Shown here: positions 3,303 to 38,309 of the stretch, in pieces
Position numbering within the stretch: position 1 is the first letter of the stretch
Layout: each line of letters opens with the position of its first letter
Assembly (NCBI GenBank): GCA_013140985.1
Contig: JABFRU010000047.1
Coordinates: 1-64,000 of the forward strand
DNA from: Chitinophagaceae bacterium
GTDB taxonomy: Bacteria > Bacteroidota > Bacteroidia > Chitinophagales > Chitinophagaceae
Length of the DNA: 64,000 bases
Direction of reading: 5' to 3'
Made by a program: the position numbers and the translations under genes
Notes under the pieces: generated by a model
Databases searched by the model: none
What the model was told of the DNA's origin: nothing
Seen by the model: the letters and a program-made list of their open reading frames with translations, nothing else

Positions 3303-3902
3303 TTAGCGGGTCCTTGTTTCCAGCAGCTTCTTCACTCCGCCGAACCATTCATTTTTTAAAATAGACAGAACAATACTATCCCTTCTTGACCCATCAACTG
3401 TTGGCATCTGGCTTCTTAATATCCCTTCTGCCACACAACCAATTGCTTTCATGGCTTCAATAGACTTTTCATTTTTTGCATGAGCCCGGAATTCTAATCG
3501 TTCCATTCCCCATTCTTCAAATACATAAGTAAGTAATAATAATTTGCAATGACGGTTGAGGCCGCTGCGCTGAAATTCCTTTCCATACCAGGTAAAGCCT
3601 AATTGTGCGTAGCCATATTGTGGTTGTATATCATAGAATCTTGTGCTGCCTGCATAGCGGTTCGTTTTTTTATCAAAAACAATAAAGACGTATTCTTTTT
3701 TTTCCTGCATGTTCTTGACGGCGCCGTTGATATAGTTGCGGAGGTTTTCTTCTCCTGCAGCAGTGATGAGTCCGAATTTCCAGATATCGGGTTCATTTAA
3801 TGAGAAAGGAAGTAAGTGTTCAACATCTTCTTCTTTGATGGGGCGGAGTAAGACTCTTTCGTTTTCGAGAACGGGATTTTCTTTGAAAATATCTTTTATC
3901 AT
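3303..3902 (-). CDS. GNAT family N-acetyltransferase (RimJ/RimL type)
   Basis: A 199-residue cytoplasmic enzyme that would transfer acetyl from acetyl-CoA to an amine, often an N-terminal or side-chain amino group in this subfamily. The frame contains the RimL-like opening ENERVLLRPIKEEDVEHL, the beta4 segment YAGSTRFYDI, the motif-A region (QLGFTWYGKEFQRSGLN) and the typical end ERLEFRAHAKNEKSIEAM with a following GCVAEGILR. All are hallmarks of Acetyltransf_3. The actual substrate cannot be read from sequence. It converges on the CHAT gene and starts ~100 bases from the left end of the transposon. Confidence 0.9.
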   Translation of the reverse strand: MIKDIFKENPVLENERVLLRPIKEEDVEHLLPFSLNEPDIWKFGLITAAGEENLRNYINGAVKNMQEKKEYVFIVFDKKTNRYAGSTRFYDIQPQYGYAQLGFTWYGKEFQRSGLNRHCKLLLLTYVFEEWGMERLEFRAHAKNEKSIEAMKAIGCVAEGILRSQMPTVDGSRRDSIVLSILKNEWFGGVKKLLETRTR

Positions 3903-4006
3903 GGAATAAAGGTATTTTTTTAATAGAGTTTGATCATGGTTCAGATGATTATAATTATTATAGATCAGTTTATTTGAATTGTTCTTCTTTACTTTTTGTC
4001 TTGATA

Positions 4007-4031
4007 GGTGACTATATACCTGTTAGACCAC
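4007..4031 (+). repeat. Left terminal inverted repeat of the transposon
   Basis: Twenty-five bases starting GGTGACTATATACCTGTT. They match the reverse complement of 9874-9898 exactly and are preceded by the TCTTGATA duplication at 3999-4006. Confidence 0.9.
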
Positions 4032-4047
4032 CCCAAAACCCTACCCC

Positions 4048-4146
4048 ATGACTAAAATTGAAATTGTTGGGGCTTGCTGCATTGTGTATGCCTTCGTTAT
4101 AGGATTATTTTGTGGGTTTATATTGGGGAAAAGGCGTAGAAAATAA
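4048..4146 (+). CDS. Small single-span membrane protein, 32 residues
   Basis: ATG at 4048 opens a 32-codon frame ending TAA at 4144-4146. The product starts MTKIEIVGACC, continues as a hydrophobic segment (IVYAFVIGLFCGFILG) and ends in KRRRK, the plan of a one-pass protein with its basic tail in the cytoplasm. It lies 17 bases inside the left inverted repeat and is tail-to-tail with the membrane protein at 4151. No family is recognised. Similar leaderless small ORFs occur by chance, but the hydrophobic block plus basic tail is suggestive. Confidence 0.4.
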   Translation: MTKIEIVGACCIVYAFVIGLFCGFILGKRRRK

Positions 4147-4150
4147 TCTT

Positions 4151-4996
4151 TTATTTTTCATTTTGTTTAATCATGGCAATTACGGACTTCCTTGTTTCCC
4201 CTCTAATTAAACGCACTGTTTTCGTTGTAAAATAATAGGCATAGACTTGGTTAATGAAAAAATTCCCTGTGCCATCCAGTCTTTTATAAGTACCGTTAAT
4301 CCATAAAAATAGATTAGATGGATTAGAATTTTCAAATGAGAAATTATGGTAAGAATCCAGCCTATAAATGGGAGAAAAAACCATTGTTGGCTCTACAGGC
4401 GTACTGTTGTCAGATTTTGTATAATAGATGTGGAAGCTATCTGAAACAACAAAACTATAGCGAATATTAATATTTGAACATCCAACCTCATGTGTTGTTA
4501 TTGATATTTTAAATTTATATTTATTATTAGGTAACTTTTCCACCAATTGTATTGGTTCAAAATCCTCCATATATAACTCTAATATGGGGTCACCGCCTGC
4601 AATCCCCTTAACAGAATCTCGTAAATTTATTAAGGTTTTATTACTTGAATCTAACTTATACCCGTATTTTCCCAATGTTTCCGAAACGATACTTGTTGTA
4701 GTGTCAAATTTCTTTTTCATTTCAACCAAAGAGGAATCATAGCTATATCTTAATCGAGCATCTCTCACCTCCTGTGATTTTGCGATTTCAATTTCTTTAT
4801 TATTATCTATGCTATCTTGAATAGCTTTTTGAATAGCAGGCATAAAAGCTAATATCCCGGTACAGATATAAAAGAACCATCCGGCTAATGTTATTCTTGA
4901 TAGACCTCTTTGTAGCGGAGCTTTTAGATCGTATGAGGTAGAAATAATTTGTGCAATGGCTGTGATAATGCTAATGGCTAATATTAAAAGAAACAT
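4151..4996 (-). CDS. Hypothetical membrane protein with coiled coil, transposon cargo
   Basis: A 281-residue protein of no family I recognise. Two hydrophobic segments lie at about residues 1-20 and 37-57. They are followed by a charged, probably coiled-coil stretch (~57-130, with EIEIAKSQEVRDARLRYSYD) and a beta-rich C-terminal half with a repeated aromatic/Asn character. The likely topology is two membrane spans with the large C-terminal part on one side. It starts 4 bases after the stop of the Xre gene, so it should be the last gene of a transposase-xre-membrane protein operon. Its role in the element is unknown. Confidence 0.75.
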   Translation of the reverse strand: MFLLILAISIITAIAQIISTSYDLKAPLQRGLSRITLAGWFFYICTGILAFMPAIQKAIQDSIDNNKEIEIAKSQEVRDARLRYSYDSSLVEMKKKFDTTTSIVSETLGKYGYKLDSSNKTLINLRDSVKGIAGGDPILELYMEDFEPIQLVEKLPNNKYKFKISITTHEVGCSNINIRYSFVVSDSFHIYYTKSDNSTPVEPTMVFSPIYRLDSYHNFSFENSNPSNLFLWINGTYKRLDGTGNFFINQVYAYYFTTKTVRLIRGETRKSVIAMIKQNEK

Positions 4997-5000
4997 AGAC

Positions 5001-5213
5001 TTAAAGTAAGTCTTTTACATCTAATTTCAATACATCAGCGATGCTTTTTAAAGTAAGTATGTGAACGTTTCGCATACCGTTTTCTATAAACCATAGGTTA
5101 GACAGATCAGTAGCACCTGACAAATCACTTAGCCTTTGCAAAGTCATTTTTTGAGCTTTTCGGGCAGCTTTAATCTTGCTGCCCATTTGCTTTAAATAAG
5201 TTCCGTTGTTCAT
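5001..5213 (-). CDS. Xre-type HTH transcriptional regulator, 70 residues
   Basis: The whole protein is one HTH_3 (Cro/C1) domain: KIKAARKAQKMTLQRLSDLSG, then the recognition helix region and ENGMRNVHILTLKSIADVLKL. It would bind DNA as a dimer, probably near promoters of the element. Its ATG overlaps the transposase stop by 4 bases (ATGA at 5210-5213), so it is co-translated with the transposase. Autoregulation of transposition is the natural guess but nothing in the sequence proves it. Confidence 0.88.
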   Translation of the reverse strand: MNNGTYLKQMGSKIKAARKAQKMTLQRLSDLSGATDLSNLWFIENGMRNVHILTLKSIADVLKLDVKDLL

Positions 5214-6136
5214 TCTTTTCCTATTAATACTTTATACTTTAATGTTCCATTGCATTGGGTTAATACTTTGGCAAATCTTTCATCTTGAAATAGCTCTCTG
5301 TTGTTATATCTAAACTCTGATTCATTACAATAGCGTTGTAAATGCTTTTCGCTAACTACATGGTGAATCCCTACTATTTGTTTCTTCAAGATGTTCCAAA
5401 ACCCTTCAATATTATTTGTGTGAACCTTTAAGCCGTTTTCATTTCTTACATATTCTTTTTCTCTATGGTTAACTGTCTTGTGGGTATAAACGGCAGCCAG
5501 TTTTTTATAAGCATGATGTTCATCCGTTACCATAATGCTATCAGGTTGTACGAATGAAGTAACGGTAGCCACCACATTTGCAGTATCAGTTTTAGGAATA
5601 ACTTTTGTCCTTACTTTCCCGTTACGCTGAACTGCGCCTAATACCATAGCCTTGTTACCTGTGCCACCTTTTACAGTTCTTTTGCTTGCGTGTTTATTTC
5701 CTTCCTTGCCGCCAACGTAAGTTTCGTCGATCTCAACTATTCCCTCCAACAATTCAGGGGCTGAATCTGTCAGCATCTTTCTTATTCTATGGTTTAAATG
5801 CCATGCAGTTTTTTGAGTTGTTCCTAACCATGTAGCCAGTTGTAAACTGCTTATCCCCTTAGAATGTACGGCCAAAATGTATGTAGCAAGAAACCATTTT
5901 GTAAGTGGCAGTTTGCTGTTTTCGTATATCGAACCAACTGTTACGCTGAATTTACTTCTGCATCCTTTTTCCCTGCATTTAAAAATCTTACCATTAGGGA
6001 AACGGCAAACATTTATAGAACCACAGAACGGACAAGCCGGAGTACCATCCCAACGTTGTTGCTCTAAATATTCTCTGCACTTTTCTTCTGTGTTAAACTC
6101 CTTTTGAAACTCTAATATACTTTTGAATGTTTTCAT
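5210..6136 (-). CDS. IS1595-family (ISXO2-like) DDE transposase
   Basis: A 308-residue transposase that would cut at the element's inverted repeats and join the ends to target DNA. An N-terminal zinc ribbon has Cys35/Cys38 (CPFC) and Cys54/Cys59. The DDE catalytic core shows Asp137 in VEIDETYVGG, Asp215 in MVTDEHHAY and Glu244 in HTNNIEGFWNILKKQ, the diagnostic IS1595 motifs. The C-terminal FRYNNRE signature is also present. Length is normal for the family and no frameshift is seen, so it appears functional. A near-consensus -7 element (TACCTTTA, 6156-6163) lies 20 bases upstream. It is divergent from the zinc-ribbon gene at 6219. Confidence 0.95.
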   Translation of the reverse strand: MKTFKSILEFQKEFNTEEKCREYLEQQRWDGTPACPFCGSINVCRFPNGKIFKCREKGCRSKFSVTVGSIYENSKLPLTKWFLATYILAVHSKGISSLQLATWLGTTQKTAWHLNHRIRKMLTDSAPELLEGIVEIDETYVGGKEGNKHASKRTVKGGTGNKAMVLGAVQRNGKVRTKVIPKTDTANVVATVTSFVQPDSIMVTDEHHAYKKLAAVYTHKTVNHREKEYVRNENGLKVHTNNIEGFWNILKKQIVGIHHVVSEKHLQRYCNESEFRYNNRELFQDERFAKVLTQCNGTLKYKVLIGKE

Positions 6137-6155
6137 TGTTTTTATTTGTCATAGA

Positions 6156-6163
6156 TAAAGGTA
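6156..6163 (-). promoter_or_regulatory. Candidate -7 element of the transposase operon
   Basis: On the minus strand this reads TACCTTTA, one base from the Bacteroidota TAnnTTTG element, 20 bases before the transposase ATG. No clear -33 TTG was found. Confidence 0.4.
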
Positions 6164-6189
6164 GAAAATATATTTGAAACATCCAAATT

Positions 6190-6197
6190 TATTTTTG
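6190..6197 (+). promoter_or_regulatory. Candidate -7 element of the zinc-ribbon gene
   Basis: TATTTTTG matches TAnnTTTG and lies 21 bases before the ATG at 6219. It makes the upstream in-frame TTG at 6174 unlikely as a start, since that would precede transcription. Confidence 0.45.
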
Positions 6198-6218
6198 TAC
6201 CTTGCCTATCCATTAGCT

Positions 6219-6614
6219 ATGACACTAAAAAGTATATATAGAAAATACCCCTCTCATGCTAAAGCAATTGCCATGCTTGAGGAAATAAAATGGCCCAACG
6301 GGCCGATTTGTCCTTACTGCTTAAGTAAGCAGTTCACCCCCCTACCCAATGAAAGTAGATACCATTGTAATGTTTGTAATGCCAGCTTTAGCGTTACTGT
6401 TGATTCGTTGTTTAAAAGAACAAGGGCTGATCTACAAAAATGGTTTTTAGCCATCCATCTTTTAAAAGACGAACCCGATATATCAGCAAGAACTCTTGGA
6501 GAAAAAATAGAAGCAACAAAGGATAGTGCATGGCTAATGATTCAAAAGATTAATAGAGCTAAAAGAGAATCTAAAGAGTTTATAGAAAGCATTGAAAATG
6601 AACTAAATAAATAA
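6219..6614 (+). CDS. Stand-alone zinc-ribbon transposase-like protein without DDE domain
   Basis: A 131-residue protein from the ATG at 6219. It resembles the N-terminal third of an IS1595 transposase: an opening helix, a four-Cys zinc ribbon (CPYC … CNVC), then SFSVTVDSLFKRTRADLQKWF. That line up closely with the ribbon and SKFSVTVGSI…LTKWF of the neighbouring transposase. A helical, HTH-like segment follows (SARTLGEKIEATKDSAW). The frame then stops in an orderly Lys/Glu-rich tail with no trace of a DDE core. It is probably a DNA-binding accessory or competitor for the transposon ends. A degraded transposase is less likely because no remnant follows. Confidence 0.75.
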   Translation: MTLKSIYRKYPSHAKAIAMLEEIKWPNGPICPYCLSKQFTPLPNESRYHCNVCNASFSVTVDSLFKRTRADLQKWFLAIHLLKDEPDISARTLGEKIEATKDSAWLMIQKINRAKRESKEFIESIENELNK

Positions 6615-6687
6615 GGTCCCGAAAACGATAGTTTTTAATAAATATGTCTTGCATACCACTGATATTCAACTCTTTAAATAAGGTCCA

Positions 6688-7563
6688 ATGAATAAAGAAG
6701 TAACAACTACCGATTTTGTCGGTTCTATCAAAATTGGGAAAGCGGAAATCCCTTGTGCCGTATTATATCCAGAAAGCGAAAATCCTATTAGAGTAATTGT
6801 CCAAAGAGAAGTGGTCGGATTATTGACAGGTAATAAAAAGGGAGGATTAGAAAGATATTTAAAGCCTGAAAATTTACAGCCTTATCTACCAGAGAAATTT
6901 AAAGATAAAGACCTAAGCAAAAGCACACACACATTTAGAGTAGCATCCAACGGAAGAATTGCACAAGGATTTGAGGGCAATGATCTTATTGACATCTGTC
7001 AAATGTATATGCAAGCAAGGACAGATCGAAAGTTGTTACCTACTCAAAAGAAATTAGCAATTCAAGCCGAAGTAATTGTTTTCGCATTTGCAAAAACGGG
7101 AGTTGCTGGTCTTATTGATAATGTGACCGGATATGAAGAAGTGAGACCCCGTTTTGCTTTGAATAGATTGTTTGAAAGATATATTGAGGAAGAAGCAAGA
7201 AAATGGGTAAAGAGATTCCCTGATAAATTTTATCAACTAATATTTAAACTAAATAATTGGGAGTACACTGAAGAAAGTATTAAAAAAAGACCAGGGATTG
7301 TAGGCAAATGGACAAAGGATATTATTTACTCAAGATTCCCCAAAGGTGTTTTATCTAAATTGGAAGATAAAAATCCAATTAACGAAAAAGGGAAAAGAGC
7401 AAGAAAACACCATCAGTTATTAACGGATATTGGGAATGACGAACTTAAAGATTATATATCTAATGCAATGTTTTTAATGGAAGCAGCACCTAATTGGCCG
7501 AGATTTAAAAATATGTTGGCTCGTGCTTTGGGTAAGACATATCAGCAAGAAATATTTGAATAA
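6688..7563 (+). CDS. P63C domain-containing protein
   Basis: A 291-residue protein recognised by the P63C-type features: an N-terminal region with CAVL and IRVIVQREVVGLLTG, the central RTDRKLLPTQKKLAIQAEVIV segment and the C-terminal RPRFALNRLFERYIEEEARKW stretch. P63C proteins occur in phages and mobile elements and have no firmly known function. The start at 6688 is preceded at a good distance by AAGG. The upstream stop at 6612-6614 and this start are separated by 73 bases in which AAATAAGGTCC occurs twice. It probably shares a transcript with the zinc-ribbon gene. It is followed by a short GC-rich hairpin. Confidence 0.8.
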   Translation: MNKEVTTTDFVGSIKIGKAEIPCAVLYPESENPIRVIVQREVVGLLTGNKKGGLERYLKPENLQPYLPEKFKDKDLSKSTHTFRVASNGRIAQGFEGNDLIDICQMYMQARTDRKLLPTQKKLAIQAEVIVFAFAKTGVAGLIDNVTGYEEVRPRFALNRLFERYIEEEARKWVKRFPDKFYQLIFKLNNWEYTEESIKKRPGIVGKWTKDIIYSRFPKGVLSKLEDKNPINEKGKRARKHHQLLTDIGNDELKDYISNAMFLMEAAPNWPRFKNMLARALGKTYQQEIFE

Positions 7564-7566
7564 ATA

Positions 7567-7585
7567 AGGGGCTATAAAAGCCCCT
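7567..7585 (+). terminator. Hairpin after the P63C gene
   Basis: AGGGGC, a loop of TATAAAA, then GCCCCT, starting 4 bases after the P63C stop. No T-run follows, so it may only stabilise the 3' end or terminate weakly. Confidence 0.4.
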
Positions 7586-7707
7586 CAAAATACCGGAAGG
7601 AAATAGCGGCAACAATATATCTGCCGTGAACCCTGCAATGTTTGGCCTTCTCATTAGAGGCTTTCTTTGCGGGGGTTTCCCGTTGTATAAAATTAGTAAA
7701 TTGCAGT

Positions 7708-7821
7708 ATGGCAAAAGCAACAAAAAAGAAATCAGCTAAAGAAGCATCAAACATCTTTCACTCTATTATGAAGGCTTCTGTAAAAGGTAATCCTAAGCCT
7801 CAAAAAAAGAAATCCAGCTAA
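7708..7821 (+). CDS. Small lysine-rich protein, 37 residues
   Basis: ATG at 7708, stop at 7819-7821. The product opens MAKATKKKSAKEASNIFHSI, has a short amphipathic middle (IFHSIMKASVKG) and ends in PKPQKKKSS. It is strongly basic and would be expected to bind nucleic acid. Small proteins of this MAK…KKSAKEAS type recur in Bacteroidota genomes to my knowledge, without assigned function. It is convergent with the nuclease-like gene and overlaps its 3' end by 4 bases. It is too short for confident gene calling from sequence alone. Confidence 0.45.
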   Translation: MAKATKKKSAKEASNIFHSIMKASVKGNPKPQKKKSS

Positions 7822-8396
7822 TCAAAAGCTGTTGATTCTAAGTTATCAAATGAAATGTGATTACCTTCTTCCAAACTAACCTTATACTGTTCTAAAAAAA
7901 GGGCCCGTTTTGTATTTAAGGAAGGCTGTGTAGGTCGGATTGCGCCCATTTTAAAACAAATAATAGCCTTTGTTTCTAACCCATTCAAATCAATATTATA
8001 TTCTCTTAACAAATTGATTGTATATCCTAATTGCTCAACAGCATCATTCCTTTTACTATTTCTCCTACCATTACTTGTCTCACTAATTTCGACAAAAAAA
8101 CATTTGTATTTATTAAAGAGAATACAATCGCATTTTTTATGATCTTGAGTAAATAAACACTTATCTGTTTTCAGAACACATATTTCGTTTTCTTCTTTAT
8201 TCCTGTTGGAGACCTTTAGCTGATGATCTTCTCTTTTTTTCACAACTCTAACTGGTTGATCTTCGCTTCTATCATCAAATACGCAAAAAAGACGGTGGGT
8301 AATAATTTCATAAGAAGTTCCTGAAATACAATTAGAAGTGTCAAGCCTCTTACAATCGCCTAAAGCATTTTTTAAGGATATAATGAATTCGTTCAT
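7818..8396 (-). CDS. Nuclease-like partner of the AAA ATPase (divergent PD-(D/E)XK?)
   Basis: A 192-residue protein, no family recognised outright. The region Asp90 … Glu103-Ile-Ser105 (CDCILF, then CFFVEIS) followed by a helix with AVEQLGYTINLL has the layout of a PD-(D/E)XK fold, where ExK sits on a strand and a Gln on the next helix. Here the Lys is replaced by Ser, so the active site is altered or the protein is a pseudo-nuclease. Five Cys residues (73, 80, 89, 91, 99) crowd the same region and might bind metal. The ATG overlaps the ATPase stop by 4 bases (8393-8396), so the two are translationally coupled. The pairing suggests an anti-phage or toxin-like module. Confidence 0.6.
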   Translation of the reverse strand: MNEFIISLKNALGDCKRLDTSNCISGTSYEIITHRLFCVFDDRSEDQPVRVVKKREDHQLKVSNRNKEENEICVLKTDKCLFTQDHKKCDCILFNKYKCFFVEISETSNGRRNSKRNDAVEQLGYTINLLREYNIDLNGLETKAIICFKMGAIRPTQPSLNTKRALFLEQYKVSLEEGNHISFDNLESTAFD

Positions 8397-9736
8397 TTCG
8401 TTAACTCCATTAGCTGTTCAAAATCATCATTAATTTTATCTGTTGCTAAATCAATATAATTATCCTCAATTAAGCCAGTTTCATTATTAAATATTGATCT
8501 TGCTGAGCCGTCACAAATCTGGTAGGCCGTAAAATTTTCTGGATTAATAGTTGCTTTTACTATTTTCTGGACTCTTTCTGTAGCCTCCTGCATGTTCTTG
8601 CTAGGAGTTGCATCACTCGAATCATTTAATTTATCAAATAGTTTCATCCTTACTTTGAAAGCATACAATAAATTATTTAAAGAAGATAGTATGTAGGGAC
8701 TGTGAGTAGTGTATGTATGTATTGTTCCATAATCTTCCCACCTGCTACGTGGATCAGTTCTCCTGGCTTCGAGAAGCTTAATTAGTTCATATTGGGCAAG
8801 AGGGAATAAGTTTAATTCTGCTTCTTCAATAACAAATGATCTATGATATATTGTCTGTTCGCTTAAAACTGAAGCAAGTAATGGTACGACACTTTGAATG
8901 CCGGAAGCAGCTTCATTCAACGAAATGATATTATCTGCATTTATATAAACCTTATCTTCTCCATCAATGATTTTATATACCAATTCTTTTTGAATAAAAT
9001 CTAATTTAATTTCATTAAGAGTAATTTTTTCTAATTCTGCTCCAAAAGATAAAATATGTTTTGGAATAGGTACGGAATTTACCATTAAGTTTAATGCCGC
9101 CTTCTTAATGATATTTACTAAGTTTCTTTCGGCGGGTATATATATGGCAGTTGATGTACTTAAATGTTCTTCAATCTCTCTAATTACTTCAAGAATTTCT
9201 TTGCTCTTGTTTTCGGAAGCGCTAACGTAATTATTCTTGTCTAGAATTGTAGGTAGGTCTTTTTCATAAAGAAGCCTACTTGCTTTTATATCGAATACTA
9301 GAAATTTACCAGAGAATTCGGAAAATTTTGTAGCTATTTCTGTTTTGTTTTTATCAAAATCAACAAATAATATCTCTAGATAATTGATTTGATCTAAAAG
9401 TTTTGGTTCGTAATTTAATACACCATTCTTGTAGGTAATTAGATGTAATTCCGATTCAAATTCTATTTCGGTTTGAGTATTTAAGAAAGAACTTATATTG
9501 TATTCAGAAAAAACATCTGCAAATTGTTTGGAAGCTTTTTCGTTATCAATTATTTTTTTATTTGTGTCTGAATCTGTTTTATAGAAAAATTTTCTAGGAG
9601 CTTTAAAAATGGTAAATATTTTAGCAAGTGCACTTTTACCAGTTGCTTGAGGCCCTATAAATACATTTACATTTCTAAGGTCTAGAGACACCTCTTTTAT
9701 TGGGCCAAAATTCTTAACTACAAGTTTAGACTTCAT
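8393..9736 (-). CDS. AAA/ABC-type ATPase of the OLD-like group, transposon cargo
   Basis: An ATPase related to the AAA_15/AAA_21 (OLD-like) group. Numbering from an upstream in-frame ATG at 9802, the motifs are Walker A GPQATGKS (50-57), an ABC-like signature NEAASGIQS (~296), Walker B FVIEE (323-327) and the H-switch TTHSPYILSSLNN (~365). The ATG at 9736 (MKSKLVVKNFGPIKEVSL) is preferred because a -7 element TATATTTG lies at 9760-9767, downstream of the 9802 start, leaving 447 residues. No TOPRIM domain follows, unlike true OLD nucleases. It is coupled to the nuclease-like gene. In known systems such ATPases sense phage and activate an effector; that role here is inferred. Confidence 0.85.
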   Translation of the reverse strand: MKSKLVVKNFGPIKEVSLDLRNVNVFIGPQATGKSALAKIFTIFKAPRKFFYKTDSDTNKKIIDNEKASKQFADVFSEYNISSFLNTQTEIEFESELHLITYKNGVLNYEPKLLDQINYLEILFVDFDKNKTEIATKFSEFSGKFLVFDIKASRLLYEKDLPTILDKNNYVSASENKSKEILEVIREIEEHLSTSTAIYIPAERNLVNIIKKAALNLMVNSVPIPKHILSFGAELEKITLNEIKLDFIQKELVYKIIDGEDKVYINADNIISLNEAASGIQSVVPLLASVLSEQTIYHRSFVIEEAELNLFPLAQYELIKLLEARRTDPRSRWEDYGTIHTYTTHSPYILSSLNNLLYAFKVRMKLFDKLNDSSDATPSKNMQEATERVQKIVKATINPENFTAYQICDGSARSIFNNETGLIEDNYIDLATDKINDDFEQLMELTK

Positions 9737-9759
9737 TATACACGTCGCTGAATTAGGGA

Positions 9760-9767
9760 CAAATATA
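9760..9767 (-). promoter_or_regulatory. Candidate -7 element of the ATPase/nuclease-like operon
   Basis: On the minus strand this reads TATATTTG, a full TAnnTTTG match, 23 bases before the ATG at 9736. It decides between two possible starts of the ATPase. Confidence 0.5.
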
Positions 9768-9873
9768 TTGCTTTGCCGATAAGTGGTTAATTTTTTAGAC
9801 ATCTGATAGATTTTTACTTTTTAGCTAAGATTTTGAGCAAGAAACGAGGGGGTGTGTTTGTGGAATTTTAGAA

Positions 9874-9898
9874 GTGGTCTAACAGGTATATAGTCACC
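9874..9898 (-). repeat. Right terminal inverted repeat of the transposon
   Basis: Its reverse complement equals 4007-4031 exactly. TCTTGATA follows directly at 9899-9906 as the second copy of the target duplication. Confidence 0.9.
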
Positions 9899-10236
9899 TC
9901 TTGATACAAAAAGTAACAAAAAAATCAAGGCAATTCGATGAGAAATTTCCTTATTACTAGTTTTCCTTTGCGAATTGCCGATGGGAAAGTCATTCTCCAT
10001 GGGATTATTTGCAGATAATGCTGCTTGTTACTCGAAGAAACTAAGGCGCTGGCTTTTTCGCATGGAAATGTTGTATAAGAAATTAAGCATAGTTCGATGC
10101 GAAAAAAATGCGCAGACAAATTCATTCTCTTTGCAGTTTCTATTCGAATAGATAAGGAGTTTTTAAAAGTTCAGCGTCTAACGCCCCCTCTCCGAAAGGA
10201 GAGGGTTGGGGTGAGGCCGTTCCAAATACCCGGAGT
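9899..10236. other. Gene-free, structured intergenic stretch right of the transposon
   Basis: No coding frame is convincing here. After the target duplication come CAAAAAGTAAC (right half of the split palindrome), an inverted pair GGCAATTCG / CGAATTGCC (around 9928-9981), and a larger pair with TTTTTCGCAT (10054-10063) and ATGCGAAAAA (10097-10106). Outer GCGC blocks flank that pair. A hairpin CCCTCTCC-GAAA-GGAGAGGG (10186-10205) is of the kind dispersed between genes in this group. It reads as a conserved intergenic repeat, not a gene. Confidence 0.5.
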
Positions 10237-10935: not shown

Positions 10936-12246
10936 CTATGCTTTGATCCTTTTTATATCAGCGCCTAATTTTTTTAATCGCCCATCAATATCCTGGTAAC
11001 CCCGGTCTATCTGCTCGATATTCTGAATAATGCTTTTTCCCTCTGCACTCAATGCTGCGATCAATAAGGCCACACCGGCACGGATGTCGGGAGAACTCAT
11101 TACAATGCCCCGCAGCATTTGTTCTCTTTCCAAACCAATCACTACGGCACGGTGCGGATCGCAGAGAACAATTCTTGCTCCCATGTCAATAAGCTTGTCA
11201 ACAAAGAACAAACGACTTTCAAACATTTTCTGATGAATGAGCACAGAACCTTTGGCCTGTATCGCCGTTACCAACACAATACTTAAAAGATCCGGCGTAA
11301 AACCCGGCCAGGGATGATCGTAGATGGTCATTACCGAACCATCGAGAAAAGTTTGTATCTCATAACTTTCCTGTGCCGGTATATGAATATCATCGCCATT
11401 GAAATTCATTTTAATTCCCAGTTGCTGAAATTTTTCAGGGATGATACCAAGATGTTCAATGCCGGCGCCTTTGATCGTTATGTCGCTTTGTGTCATTGCA
11501 GCGAGACCAATGAATGAGCCTACTTCGATCATATCCGGAAGAATAGTGTGAGATGTACCATTGAGTTTGTCAACACCATCAATACTTAACCTGTTACTTC
11601 CCACACCGGCGATCTTTGCACCCATCTTCTGCAACATCTTACAGAGTTGCTGGATATACGGTTCGCAGGCAGCATTATAAATGGTTGTCACACCTTTTGC
11701 AAGGACCGCTGCCATAATGATATTGGCGGTGCCGGTGACAGAAGGTTCATCTAATAATAGATCTGCTCCTTTTAAATTGGGAGCTTCCAAATGAAAGAAG
11801 CCATCTTCTTCATGATAAGTAAATGAAGCGCCGAGTTTTTCAAAACCAATGATATGTGTATCTAATCTTCGTCTTCCTATTTTATCGCCACCTGGTTTTG
11901 GAATAAATGCTTTTTTAAATCTCCCCAGCAATGGACCTGCCAGCATCACTGACCCCCGAAGCTTACCGCTTTTCTTTTTATATTCTTCGCTGCGCAGGTA
12001 ATCAACATTTATATTGTCGGCCTGGAAAGTACAGGTATCTCTTTTGGGTCTTTCAATCTTTACATTCATCTCACCCAGTAATTCTATCAGCAGGTTTACA
12101 TCGGTGATGTCAGGAATATTGCTGATGGTAATTTTTTCTGCTGTCAGCAATACCGCACTGATAACCTGCAATGCTTCATTCTTGGCGCCCTGCGGAATAA
12201 TCTCGCCGGATAATTTTTTACCGCCTTTTACTTCGAAGGAATGCAT
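10936..12246 (-). CDS. murA: UDP-N-acetylglucosamine 1-carboxyvinyltransferase
   Basis: Catalyses the first committed step of peptidoglycan synthesis, adding enolpyruvate from PEP to UDP-GlcNAc in the cytoplasm. The start MHSFEVKGGKKLSGEIIPQG at 12246 aligns with the usual MurA N-terminus; an upstream in-frame ATG at 12330 would add 28 atypical residues. Lys-Asn of AKNEALQ, the SGKLRGSVMLAGPLL and DIRAGVALLIAAL blocks are all present. The residue that is Cys115 in E. coli is Asp121 here (KPGGDKIGRRRLD), as in other naturally fosfomycin-resistant MurA enzymes. It lies downstream of the DUF4290 gene with ~110 bases between and is likely co-transcribed. Confidence 0.96.
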   Translation of the reverse strand: MHSFEVKGGKKLSGEIIPQGAKNEALQVISAVLLTAEKITISNIPDITDVNLLIELLGEMNVKIERPKRDTCTFQADNINVDYLRSEEYKKKSGKLRGSVMLAGPLLGRFKKAFIPKPGGDKIGRRRLDTHIIGFEKLGASFTYHEEDGFFHLEAPNLKGADLLLDEPSVTGTANIIMAAVLAKGVTTIYNAACEPYIQQLCKMLQKMGAKIAGVGSNRLSIDGVDKLNGTSHTILPDMIEVGSFIGLAAMTQSDITIKGAGIEHLGIIPEKFQQLGIKMNFNGDDIHIPAQESYEIQTFLDGSVMTIYDHPWPGFTPDLLSIVLVTAIQAKGSVLIHQKMFESRLFFVDKLIDMGARIVLCDPHRAVVIGLEREQMLRGIVMSSPDIRAGVALLIAALSAEGKSIIQNIEQIDRGYQDIDGRLKKLGADIKRIKA

Positions 12247-12355
12247 CTTGTTTGTTAACGGGTTAACAAGTTTATAAGTTGATAGGGACTGCAATGTAAA
12301 AGAAAAAGGTTGACCGGAAAACCCTGTCAACCTTTCAACATGTTAACTTATCAAC

Positions 12356-37619: not shown

Positions 37620-38309
37620 ATGCCAAAACCATTTCTTCTACTTCTATTGATCTTGCCGGCCAGCTTGCTTGCGCAAAAAGACAGTACACAAAAAGGATGG
37701 GCTGCTACATTTACTGTTACTGCTGTTCCTATCGGTCAGCCGGGACTTGGGATACAACCCGGTGTTGAATATCGCTTCAATGATCGCTATAGTTTATTGG
37801 CGGAAGTAGCTTTCAGGGCGAACAAAAATATAAGCAAGGATTCATCGGAGTTTGATAAACATTATTTGAAATTCAAAACAGAGTTGCGTTATCATATGCC
37901 CGGCAATAAAGGAAGATGGGGTCATGAGTATTTTGCATTCCAGCTTTCTCATACCACCCGCACATTTACAACCAGGAATGGTTTTTATCATGGCGATCTT
38001 CCCGGCGATAGTGTTTATTATTATAGCCAGGCAGCGATCAAAAGCCCTGTTACTACGGCTTCTGTACAATTCGGAACCATCCTGACAGAAGGCCGGTTTG
38101 CCTTGGATGCATTCATTGGCATTGGCGCCCGTTTTATCAATACCAGTATCAGTGATATAAAAAATCAAGCCAAGGGTATCCATACTCCTGAAGGACTCCA
38201 TTTTACCGCCTCTTATTCGTATGCAGGAAATAAAACGATGTTTCACCTGAATGGCGGTATCCGGTTCATGTGGCATTTCTACCATTTCAAACATCCCCGG
38301 AAGCAATAA
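37620..38309 (+). CDS. Putative outer membrane beta-barrel protein
   Basis: A 229-residue exported protein, signal peptide MPKPFLLLLLILPASLLAQ. Mature part alternates beta strands and turns (GVEYRFNDRYSLLAEVAFRA, LKFKTELRYHMPG, LHFTASYSYAG) and ends HLNGGIRFMWHFYHFKHPR, typical of small barrels of the DUF3575 type. I cannot assign a family firmly. It sits between cdsA and psd. Confidence 0.7.
   Translation: MPKPFLLLLLILPASLLAQKDSTQKGWAATFTVTAVPIGQPGLGIQPGVEYRFNDRYSLLAEVAFRANKNISKDSSEFDKHYLKFKTELRYHMPGNKGRWGHEYFAFQLSHTTRTFTTRNGFYHGDLPGDSVYYYSQAAIKSPVTTASVQFGTILTEGRFALDAFIGIGARFINTSISDIKNQAKGIHTPEGLHFTASYSYAGNKTMFHLNGGIRFMWHFYHFKHPRKQ

What the first reader, a model, noticed from the sequence alone, without database searches (positions are those of the whole stretch)
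4007..9898. Intact IS1595-type transposon carrying seven passenger genes
Seen: 25-bp perfect inverted repeats at both ends, matching 8-bp duplications TCTTGATA outside them, and an intact DDE transposase with all motifs. The cargo is unusually rich for this family: an Xre regulator, a membrane protein, a DDE-less ribbon protein, a P63C protein, two very small proteins and a coupled ATPase/nuclease-like pair. Known: IS1595 elements make 8-bp duplications and some carry passenger genes. Inferred: this is a recent, possibly active, defence-carrying element.
Basis: partly seen in the sequence, partly recalled or inferred. Interest (0 to 1): 0.78.

Follow-up and report, generated by a model that had tools for sequence, protein, structure and literature searches.

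The report
Cargo transposon that enters hairpin loops
This is a complete mobile DNA element carrying a likely anti-phage gene pair; it and most of its close relatives sit at the loop of small dispersed palindromes, and they share a tiny protein of unknown function.

Summary
Window 4007-9898 has perfect 25-bp inverted ends, an 8-bp duplication and an intact IS1595-family transposase.

I compared it with relatives having the same ends: 21 complete chromosomal elements, window included.

(1) Target. The duplicated 8-mer is the loop of a palindrome in the host. In 16 of 21 sites at least 5 of 6 flanking bases pair across it (intergenic background 0.9%); pairing exceeded 100,000 of 100,000 re-pairings of the flanks. 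The window's target is a dispersed repeat with uninterrupted copies in the same genome. Exceptions: 5 of 21 sites, both paired phage-contig sites and one Tnp-less pair of ends.

(2) Core. A Lys-rich microprotein (window 7708-7821) is in 21 of 21 elements, and an Xre gene at the end of tnp in 20 of 21.

(3) Cargo differs. The window has a PDC-M29-like ATPase/nuclease pair; 4 of 20 relatives gave restriction-type or defence-candidate matches among the ORFs scanned. The window's nuclease lacks the usual ExK lysine.

A new variant of a known kind. Transposition, defence and the microprotein's role are untested.

The parts
3989..3998 (+). left arm of the target palindrome (host DNA), TTACTTTTTG
   Evidence: pairs 10 of 10 with 9907-9916
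3999..4006 (+). left copy of the 8-bp target duplication TCTTGATA = loop of the palindrome
   Evidence: one copy only in the uninterrupted repeat on contig C29
4007..4031 (+). left terminal inverted repeat (25 bp)
   Evidence: same type of ends in relatives
4048..4146 (+). 32-aa putative single-pass membrane ORF
   Evidence: read by eye; not tested for conservation
4151..4996 (-). 281-aa cargo protein with hydrophobic N-terminus (by eye), function unknown
   Evidence: no family above its cut-off
5001..5213 (-). Xre-type regulator, start overlaps tnp stop (ATGA)
   Evidence: HTH_3; in 20 of 21 elements; coupling
5210..6136 (-). IS1595-family DDE transposase (308 aa)
6137..6218 (.). divergent promoter region with a TTTGG...CAAA-like palindrome next to a Bacteroidota-type -7 box (possible Xre operator)
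   Evidence: by eye; promoter consensus recalled
6219..6614 (+). 131-aa zinc-ribbon protein: transposase N-terminus without the DDE domain
   Evidence: Zn_ribbon_IS1595; 31% identity to tnp residues 11-133; relatives in L011, L013, L062, L100
6688..7563 (+). P63C-domain protein, phage antirepressor-like
   Evidence: Pfam P63C; phrog_2384 (unknown function) and a weak match to anti-repressor Ant
7708..7821 (+). 37-aa Lys-rich 'KEAS' microprotein MAKATKKKSAKEASNIFHSIMKASVKGNPKPQKKKSS, conserved core gene
   Evidence: in 21 of 21 complete elements; 9 of 9 matches in 244 genomes lie in or beside IS1595-type elements or an end-like sequence
7818..8396 (-). 192-aa PD-(D/E)XK-like nuclease (PDC-M29B), ExK changed to ExS
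   Evidence: model pLDDT 66, fold matches not significant
8393..9802 (-). 469-aa AAA_15/AAA_21 ATPase (PDC-M29A), overlaps the nuclease gene
9874..9898 (-). right terminal inverted repeat (25 bp)
9899..9906 (+). right copy of TCTTGATA
9907..9916 (+). right arm of the target palindrome, CAAAAAGTAA
9899..9995 (-). right part of the interrupted dispersed repeat; its other part is 3985-4006
   Evidence: they cover bases 1-99 and 92-113 of the uninterrupted repeat, overlapping by exactly the 8-mer

Best explanation
A complete cargo-carrying IS1595-family transposon (a 'transporter IS'). Shown by sequence: it interrupts the loop of a dispersed palindromic repeat and left an 8-bp duplication; its clade shares the same ends, a tnp-xre pair (20 of 21) and a microprotein (21 of 21), and carries differing cargo, in some cases restriction-type or candidate defence genes. 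Inferred: a symmetric transposase complex selects palindromic DNA, perhaps as a hairpin or cruciform, and joins the ends at the two stem/loop borders, so the loop becomes the duplication. Xre represses the tnp promoter, with the P63C and ribbon proteins as antagonists. The basic microprotein is a DNA-binding accessory of transposition. The ATPase/nuclease pair is an anti-phage module, possibly weakened by ExK to ExS. Landing in dispersed repeats spares host genes.
For: Ends, duplication and transposase. Same-ended elements with own duplications and different cargo. Palindrome at the site: 16 of 21 with at least 5/6 paired (intergenic background 0.89%), 11 of 21 with 6/6 (0.13%). Pairing sum 98 against permuted mean 61.4 and maximum 85 in 100,000 permutations. 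For 20 sites, mean pairing 4.6 at the exact centre against 2.45 or less at any other offset scanned. Hairpin energy (RNA parameters) -10 kcal/mol or lower in 15 of 21 against 10% of random and 17% of swapped sites. Uninterrupted copies: own genome; 35 of 50 matches, in 4 of 5 genomes, run through the junction. Varied but paired arms in uninterrupted repeats. Microprotein 21 of 21, Xre 20 of 21. Cargo.
Against: 5 of 21 chromosomal sites lack adjacent arms (L012, L013, L102, L104, L107); three of these have a looser palindrome by eye. Both paired phage-contig sites lack arms (the second, L127/L128, was paired by eye), and so does a 586-bp Tnp-less pair of ends in L082 (by eye). So palindromes are preferred, not required. 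Many sites share a few repeat families, so they are not independent in sequence. By a crude ORF test (80 aa or more) only 12 of 21 sites, the window's not among them, count as intergenic; some of those ORFs are probably spurious. Nine same-genus loci read gave no empty site with the hairpin. Single copy here; no transposition seen. The nuclease lacks the ExK Lys, and its best fold match is not significant (E 0.07).
Confidence: 0.8

Rival explanations
1. The transposase has only a loose symmetric sequence consensus (about TTTTG[TnTnnAnA]CAAAA) as double-stranded DNA; palindromes are hit because their sequence fits, with no role for the hairpin.
For: A symmetric consensus is visible in 20 sites; flanks paired across different sites already complement above background (2.81 against 1.55 of 6).
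Against: True partners pair better than swapped ones (98 against maximum 85 in 100,000 permutations); arms as different as GTTGG/CCAAC, GGTTCG/CGAACC, AAGGTTTG/CAAACCTT and CCGTTG/CAACGG are used. Swapping does not fully control for shared repeat families.
Confidence: 0.35
2. Survivorship: insertion is random, and only insertions in harmless dispersed repeats survive.
For: Such placement is tolerated; the phage-contig insertions lack palindromes.
Against: Intergenic background is 0.9% while 16 of 21 sites qualify; pairing is centred to the base on the duplication; 7 of 7 relatives with other ends whose ends I could place (one low-confidence) lack arms (by eye), though they face the same survivorship.
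Confidence: 0.07
3. The outer inverted arms belong to the transposon (composite ends), not to the target.
For: They flank most copies (16 of 21).
Against: Arms differ between copies whose ends are conserved, and the same palindromes occur without any element.
Confidence: 0.02
4. The ATPase/nuclease pair is not defence but another Rad50/OLD-like DNA-repair or addiction module.
For: PDC-M29 is only a candidate system in PADLOC; no paper with that name was found in the held library; possibly inactive nuclease.
Against: Four of 20 relatives in the clade carry GmrSD-like, MmeI-like or HEC-09-like genes, so defence-type cargo recurs in the clade.
Confidence: 0.3

Closest known systems
IS1595 family, transporter ISs with passenger genes (Siguier et al. 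2009, recalled, not held; tIS as a class seen in passages of PMC3129680 and PMC7986276)
   Same: Zinc ribbon plus DDE transposase, inverted ends, 8-bp duplication, passenger genes
   Different: Here a clade with palindrome-loop targets, coupled xre, a shared microprotein and some restriction/defence cargo; I saw none of these in the listings
REP-targeting insertion sequences IS1397, ISKpn1, IS621, ISPpu9 (PMC1525189, passages read)
   Same: Insertion into dispersed extragenic palindromes
   Different: That paper names IS3, IS110, IS4, IS256 and IS5 families and has no occurrence of IS1595; cargo is not mentioned in the passages I saw
PADLOC candidate system PDC-M29
   Same: Adjacent AAA ATPase and small nuclease-like gene, both matched
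   Different: Carried inside a transposon; ExK is ExS in the window
Tn7-like and other transposons that carry defence genes (recalled)
   Same: Exchangeable defence cargo between fixed ends
   Different: Single small DDE transposase, many dispersed target sites

Membership tests
IS1595 family | Zn-ribbon plus DDE_Tnp_IS1595 transposase above curated cut-offs | tested here: met
IS1595 family | 8-bp target duplication | tested here: met
   window and 19 relatives 8 bp; L017 reads as 7 bp
IS1595 family | terminal inverted repeats | tested here: met
Transporter IS (tIS) | passenger genes unrelated to transposition between the ends | tested here: met
REP-targeting IS | insertion inside dispersed palindromes | tested here: met
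   by sequence only, 16 of 21 sites
REP-targeting IS | experimental target selectivity of the transposase | not testable with these tools
   needs a transposition assay
REP sequences proper | high copy number, extragenic place and a RAYT partner | tested here: inconclusive
   9 matches, about 8 copies in this genome; 5-13 through-junction matches in each of 4 Mucilaginibacter genomes; RAYT not looked for
PDC-M29 | adjacent A and B genes | tested here: met
   ATPase ORF beside the small gene in 4 of 4 relatives read
PDC-M29 | catalytic ExK in the nuclease | tested here: not met
   ExS in the window, ExK in 4 of 4 relatives
PDC-M29 | anti-phage activity | not testable with these tools
   only a candidate in PADLOC

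The most novel reading that the evidence does not exclude
A DDE transposon that reads DNA secondary structure: the transposase, helped by a transposon-encoded Lys-rich microprotein, recognises an extruded hairpin or cruciform and cuts at the two stem/loop borders, so the target duplication is the loop and follows loop length (one element, L017, has a 7-bp duplication in a 7-bp loop). The clade uses this to place exchangeable defence cargo in harmless dispersed palindromes.
Probability: 0.25. Interest if true: 0.85.

Novelty: new variant of a known kind. Interest (0 to 1): 0.62.

Why it matters
It would extend palindrome targeting to the IS1595 family and to a transposon clade that moves restriction-type and candidate defence genes, a natural safe-site strategy for spreading immunity in Bacteroidota. 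The microprotein found in 21 of 21 elements is a directly testable candidate for a new transposition factor, too small for usual annotation.

Tried and rejected
Orthologous empty site: the acetyltransferase left of the element is found in 20 of 42 same-genus genomes, own included. I looked at 9 fetched relatives (L137-L145): murA is on the same stretch in 8 of 9. A scan of the 9 for 8-base loops with arms of 7 or more found two palindromes, neither between murA and the acetyltransferase gene; I printed the region upstream of the gene for 6 of 9 and saw no empty site. Uninterrupted copies of the repeat were used instead.

Tnp-less elements: single ends without tnp were fetched. Of the 25 single ends scanned, one had a convincing partner (L082, 586 bp, one end with 6 mismatches, exact duplication AATTATTT, no arms by eye); the rest end at contig ends, are decayed or had no partner found. 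Two further insertions whose two ends lie on different contigs of one genome (G258, G312, paired by eye) fit the palindrome rule but were left out of the counts.

L017 is left out of the 20 (7-bp duplication) and included in the 21. L010 has two left ends; the outer was used, the inner.

A 9-bp duplication suggested by L071/L072 was dropped because they are different genomes. Orientation bias of the loop relative to tnp (5 of 6 for loops of the TCAAG type) is too small to claim. Searching the cargo pair in plasmids gave 1 weak ATPase record and 0 for the nuclease. Solved-structure searches gave nothing useful.

Full report
What is there. The element at 4007-9898 is real. Its ends are perfect 25-bp inverted copies, with no other match in the genome at up to 3 mismatches. 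TCTTGATA is repeated directly outside. The transposase carries both IS1595 domains and passes the curated cut-offs. The genome also holds a second, 44%-identical IS1595 on contig C9 with other ends.

Relatives. A scan of species genomes gave 18 transposase relatives. Eleven of the 18 form complete elements with the same type of ends and an exact 8-bp duplication, L017 has a 7-bp one, four showed one end only, and two have other ends. Searches of family, order and phylum samples gave more: an end in 26 of 394 genomes, the transposase in 15 of 396 (E 1e-90 or better) and in 6 of 395 (1e-80 or better), own genome counted each time and samples overlapping. These added eight complete elements (L062, L100, L102-L107). 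With the window, 21 complete chromosomal elements remain after removing duplicates. They span 2.8-6.5 kb and all carry genes beyond the core.

Target site. Putting the flanks together shows a palindrome whose loop is the duplicated 8-mer. For 20 sites, pairing of six bases on each side averages 4.6, against 1.55 at background positions and 2.45 or less at any other offset from -12 to +12. With L017, 16 of 21 sites have at least 5/6 pairs and 11 of 21 have 6/6; at 37,737 intergenic positions the fractions are 0.89% and 0.13%. Re-pairing left and right flanks 100,000 times never reached the observed sum (98 against at most 85), so this exceeds a shared consensus, though several sites come from the same repeat families. 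By hairpin energy with RNA parameters, 15 of 21 reach -10 kcal/mol against 10% of random and 17% of swapped sites. Exceptions: L012, L013, L102, L104 and L107 lack adjacent arms. By eye L012 has arms CGTTGTTG/CAACAACG one or two bases further out, and L102 and L104 have wider palindromes; L013 and L107 show little. Both paired insertions on phage contigs (L126; L127 with L128, the latter paired by eye) lack arms, as does a Tnp-less 586-bp pair of ends in L082. Seven relatives with other ends (L026, L027, L108, L109, L117, L118, L119; L117 low-confidence) show none, read by eye. A crude ORF test places 12 of 21 sites in intergenic DNA and flags the other nine, the window included, as overlapping an ORF of 80 aa or more; I think several of these ORFs are spurious but did not prove it.

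The window's target is a dispersed repeat. An uninterrupted copy on contig C29 used as query gave 9 matches in the genome. Two of these are the halves of the window copy, covering query bases 1-99 and 92-113, an overlap of exactly the eight duplicated bases. The joined sites of L016, L018 and L023 were searched in five genomes: four of Mucilaginibacter gave 50 matches, that of L011 gave none at 1e-10. By my reading of the table, 35 of the 50 run at least 10 bases past both sides of a junction (9, 8, 5 and 13 per genome); some matches overlap each other, so they are not 35 separate copies. In 37 loci holding such repeats, 18 distinct palindromes around TCAAG were found, most with different but complementary arms such as TTAC/GTAA, TCC/GGA and TTC/GAA. 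That scan asked for pairing, so it shows variety, not a rate, and one of the 18 (L177, loop ACACTCAAG) is probably unrelated. This looks like a REP-type repeat.

Core genes. An iterated profile, seeded from five elements, found the Lys-rich microprotein (mostly 34-47 aa, in some a longer ORF) in 21 of 21 elements (22 ORFs); one seeded from two found the Xre gene in 20 of 21, absent in L107. By my reading the Xre start overlaps or lies within about ten bases of the tnp stop in those 20. In the 21 loci no microprotein match fell in the flanks outside the elements (window searched to 20 kb). In 244 family genomes the microprotein had 9 matches in 8 genomes: 7 lie in elements or end-bearing fragments of this clade, one lies about 290 bases from an end-like sequence with 6 mismatches (L171), and one lies beside a 49%-identical IS1595 transposase (L172). 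It has no Pfam, NCBIfam or PHROG match. Its basic, short form suggests DNA binding; that is inference.

Regulatory module. The ribbon-only protein plus P63C protein occurs in W, L011, L013, L062 and L100, with a P63C relative alone in L023. P63C resembles phage proteins of unknown function and weakly anti-repressor Ant. In W, L011, L013 and L100 the tnp upstream region shares a palindrome near a promoter-like box (by eye). A repressor/antirepressor switch is my inference.

Cargo. The window pair matches PDC-M29A (1.9e-40) and PDC-M29B (2.9e-12). Relatives of the small protein were found in 7 of 376 order genomes, own included; in the four I read, an ATPase ORF lies beside it, and in one of them (G177, L176) neither this transposon's ends nor its tnp was found nearby. 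The nuclease motif is D-x12-ExK in those four and ExS in the window. The model is of moderate confidence (pLDDT 66); no fold match is significant, though PD-(D/E)XK-type nucleases are frequent among the weak ones (type recalled). For other elements I scanned selected ORFs only: 20 with Pfam and 10 with PADLOC, of 137 ORFs of 60 aa or more in the 21 elements (tnp, Xre and spurious ORFs included). Restriction-type or defence-candidate matches came from four relatives: GmrSD (L010), a GmrSD N-part plus HNH (L102), an MmeI-like enzyme (L022) and an NYN/HEC-09 protein (L105). L104 has a MazF-like match below the curated cut-off. A two-gene pair shared by L016 and L017 has no match. L016, L018 and L023 have about 90% identical transposases but different cargo, and L016 shares a gene pair with L017 whose transposase is 70% identical; I infer that cargo is exchanged.

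Literature. Passages of PMC1525189 name IS3, IS110, IS4, IS256 and IS5 as families with REP-targeting members; IS1595 does not occur in its text. Searches for IS1595 with hairpin, palindrome, target specificity, passenger and defence terms, and for palindrome-targeting ISs in Bacteroidetes, listed no paper on this as far as titles and abstract openings tell (some searches listed only 15 of 50, 15 of 657 and 20 of 29). Beyond listings I saw only the passages. The 2009 IS1595 paper was not held, so novelty of the target rule is provisional.

Verdict. A known kind of mobile element, with a target rule and a conserved microprotein that I have not found described.

Noticed in passing
L010:4876-5344: Two left ends in tandem, both preceded by GTTGG and TCGCCTGA, with one right end; either left end would give a valid element, a possible route to cargo gain.
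   Followed up: partly
L175:9427, L174:5662, L173:8049: Single transposon ends without tnp found on the stretch fetched, two of them (L174, L173) with the microprotein just inside; decayed or Tnp-less elements.
   Followed up: partly
G173: L100:7289-7296 and L171:8961-8968: Same 8-mer TGGGGACA with the same right arm CGAACCAAGGCGG at two loci of one genome, suggesting the same repeat was hit twice.
   Followed up: no
L016, L018, L023 target repeats: The repeats often lie in close inverted pairs, like BIMEs; TCAAG in the loop can also pair with CTTGA upstream of the left arm (by eye).
   Followed up: no
L116:7511-7660, L109:9766-9966, L134:7117-7326: Variant microproteins beside or inside IS1595 relatives with other ends (L116, L109), and in a phage contig between end-like sequences (L134; tnp not checked), so the small protein may be wider than this clade.
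   Followed up: partly
window 10936-12330 and 3303-3902: murA lies on the same short stretch as this acetyltransferase gene in 8 of 9 same-genus loci read; in the window a Fib_succ-domain gene and the transposon lie between them.
   Followed up: partly
window 7818-8396: Nuclease ExK changed to ExS compared with 4 of 4 relatives.
   Followed up: partly
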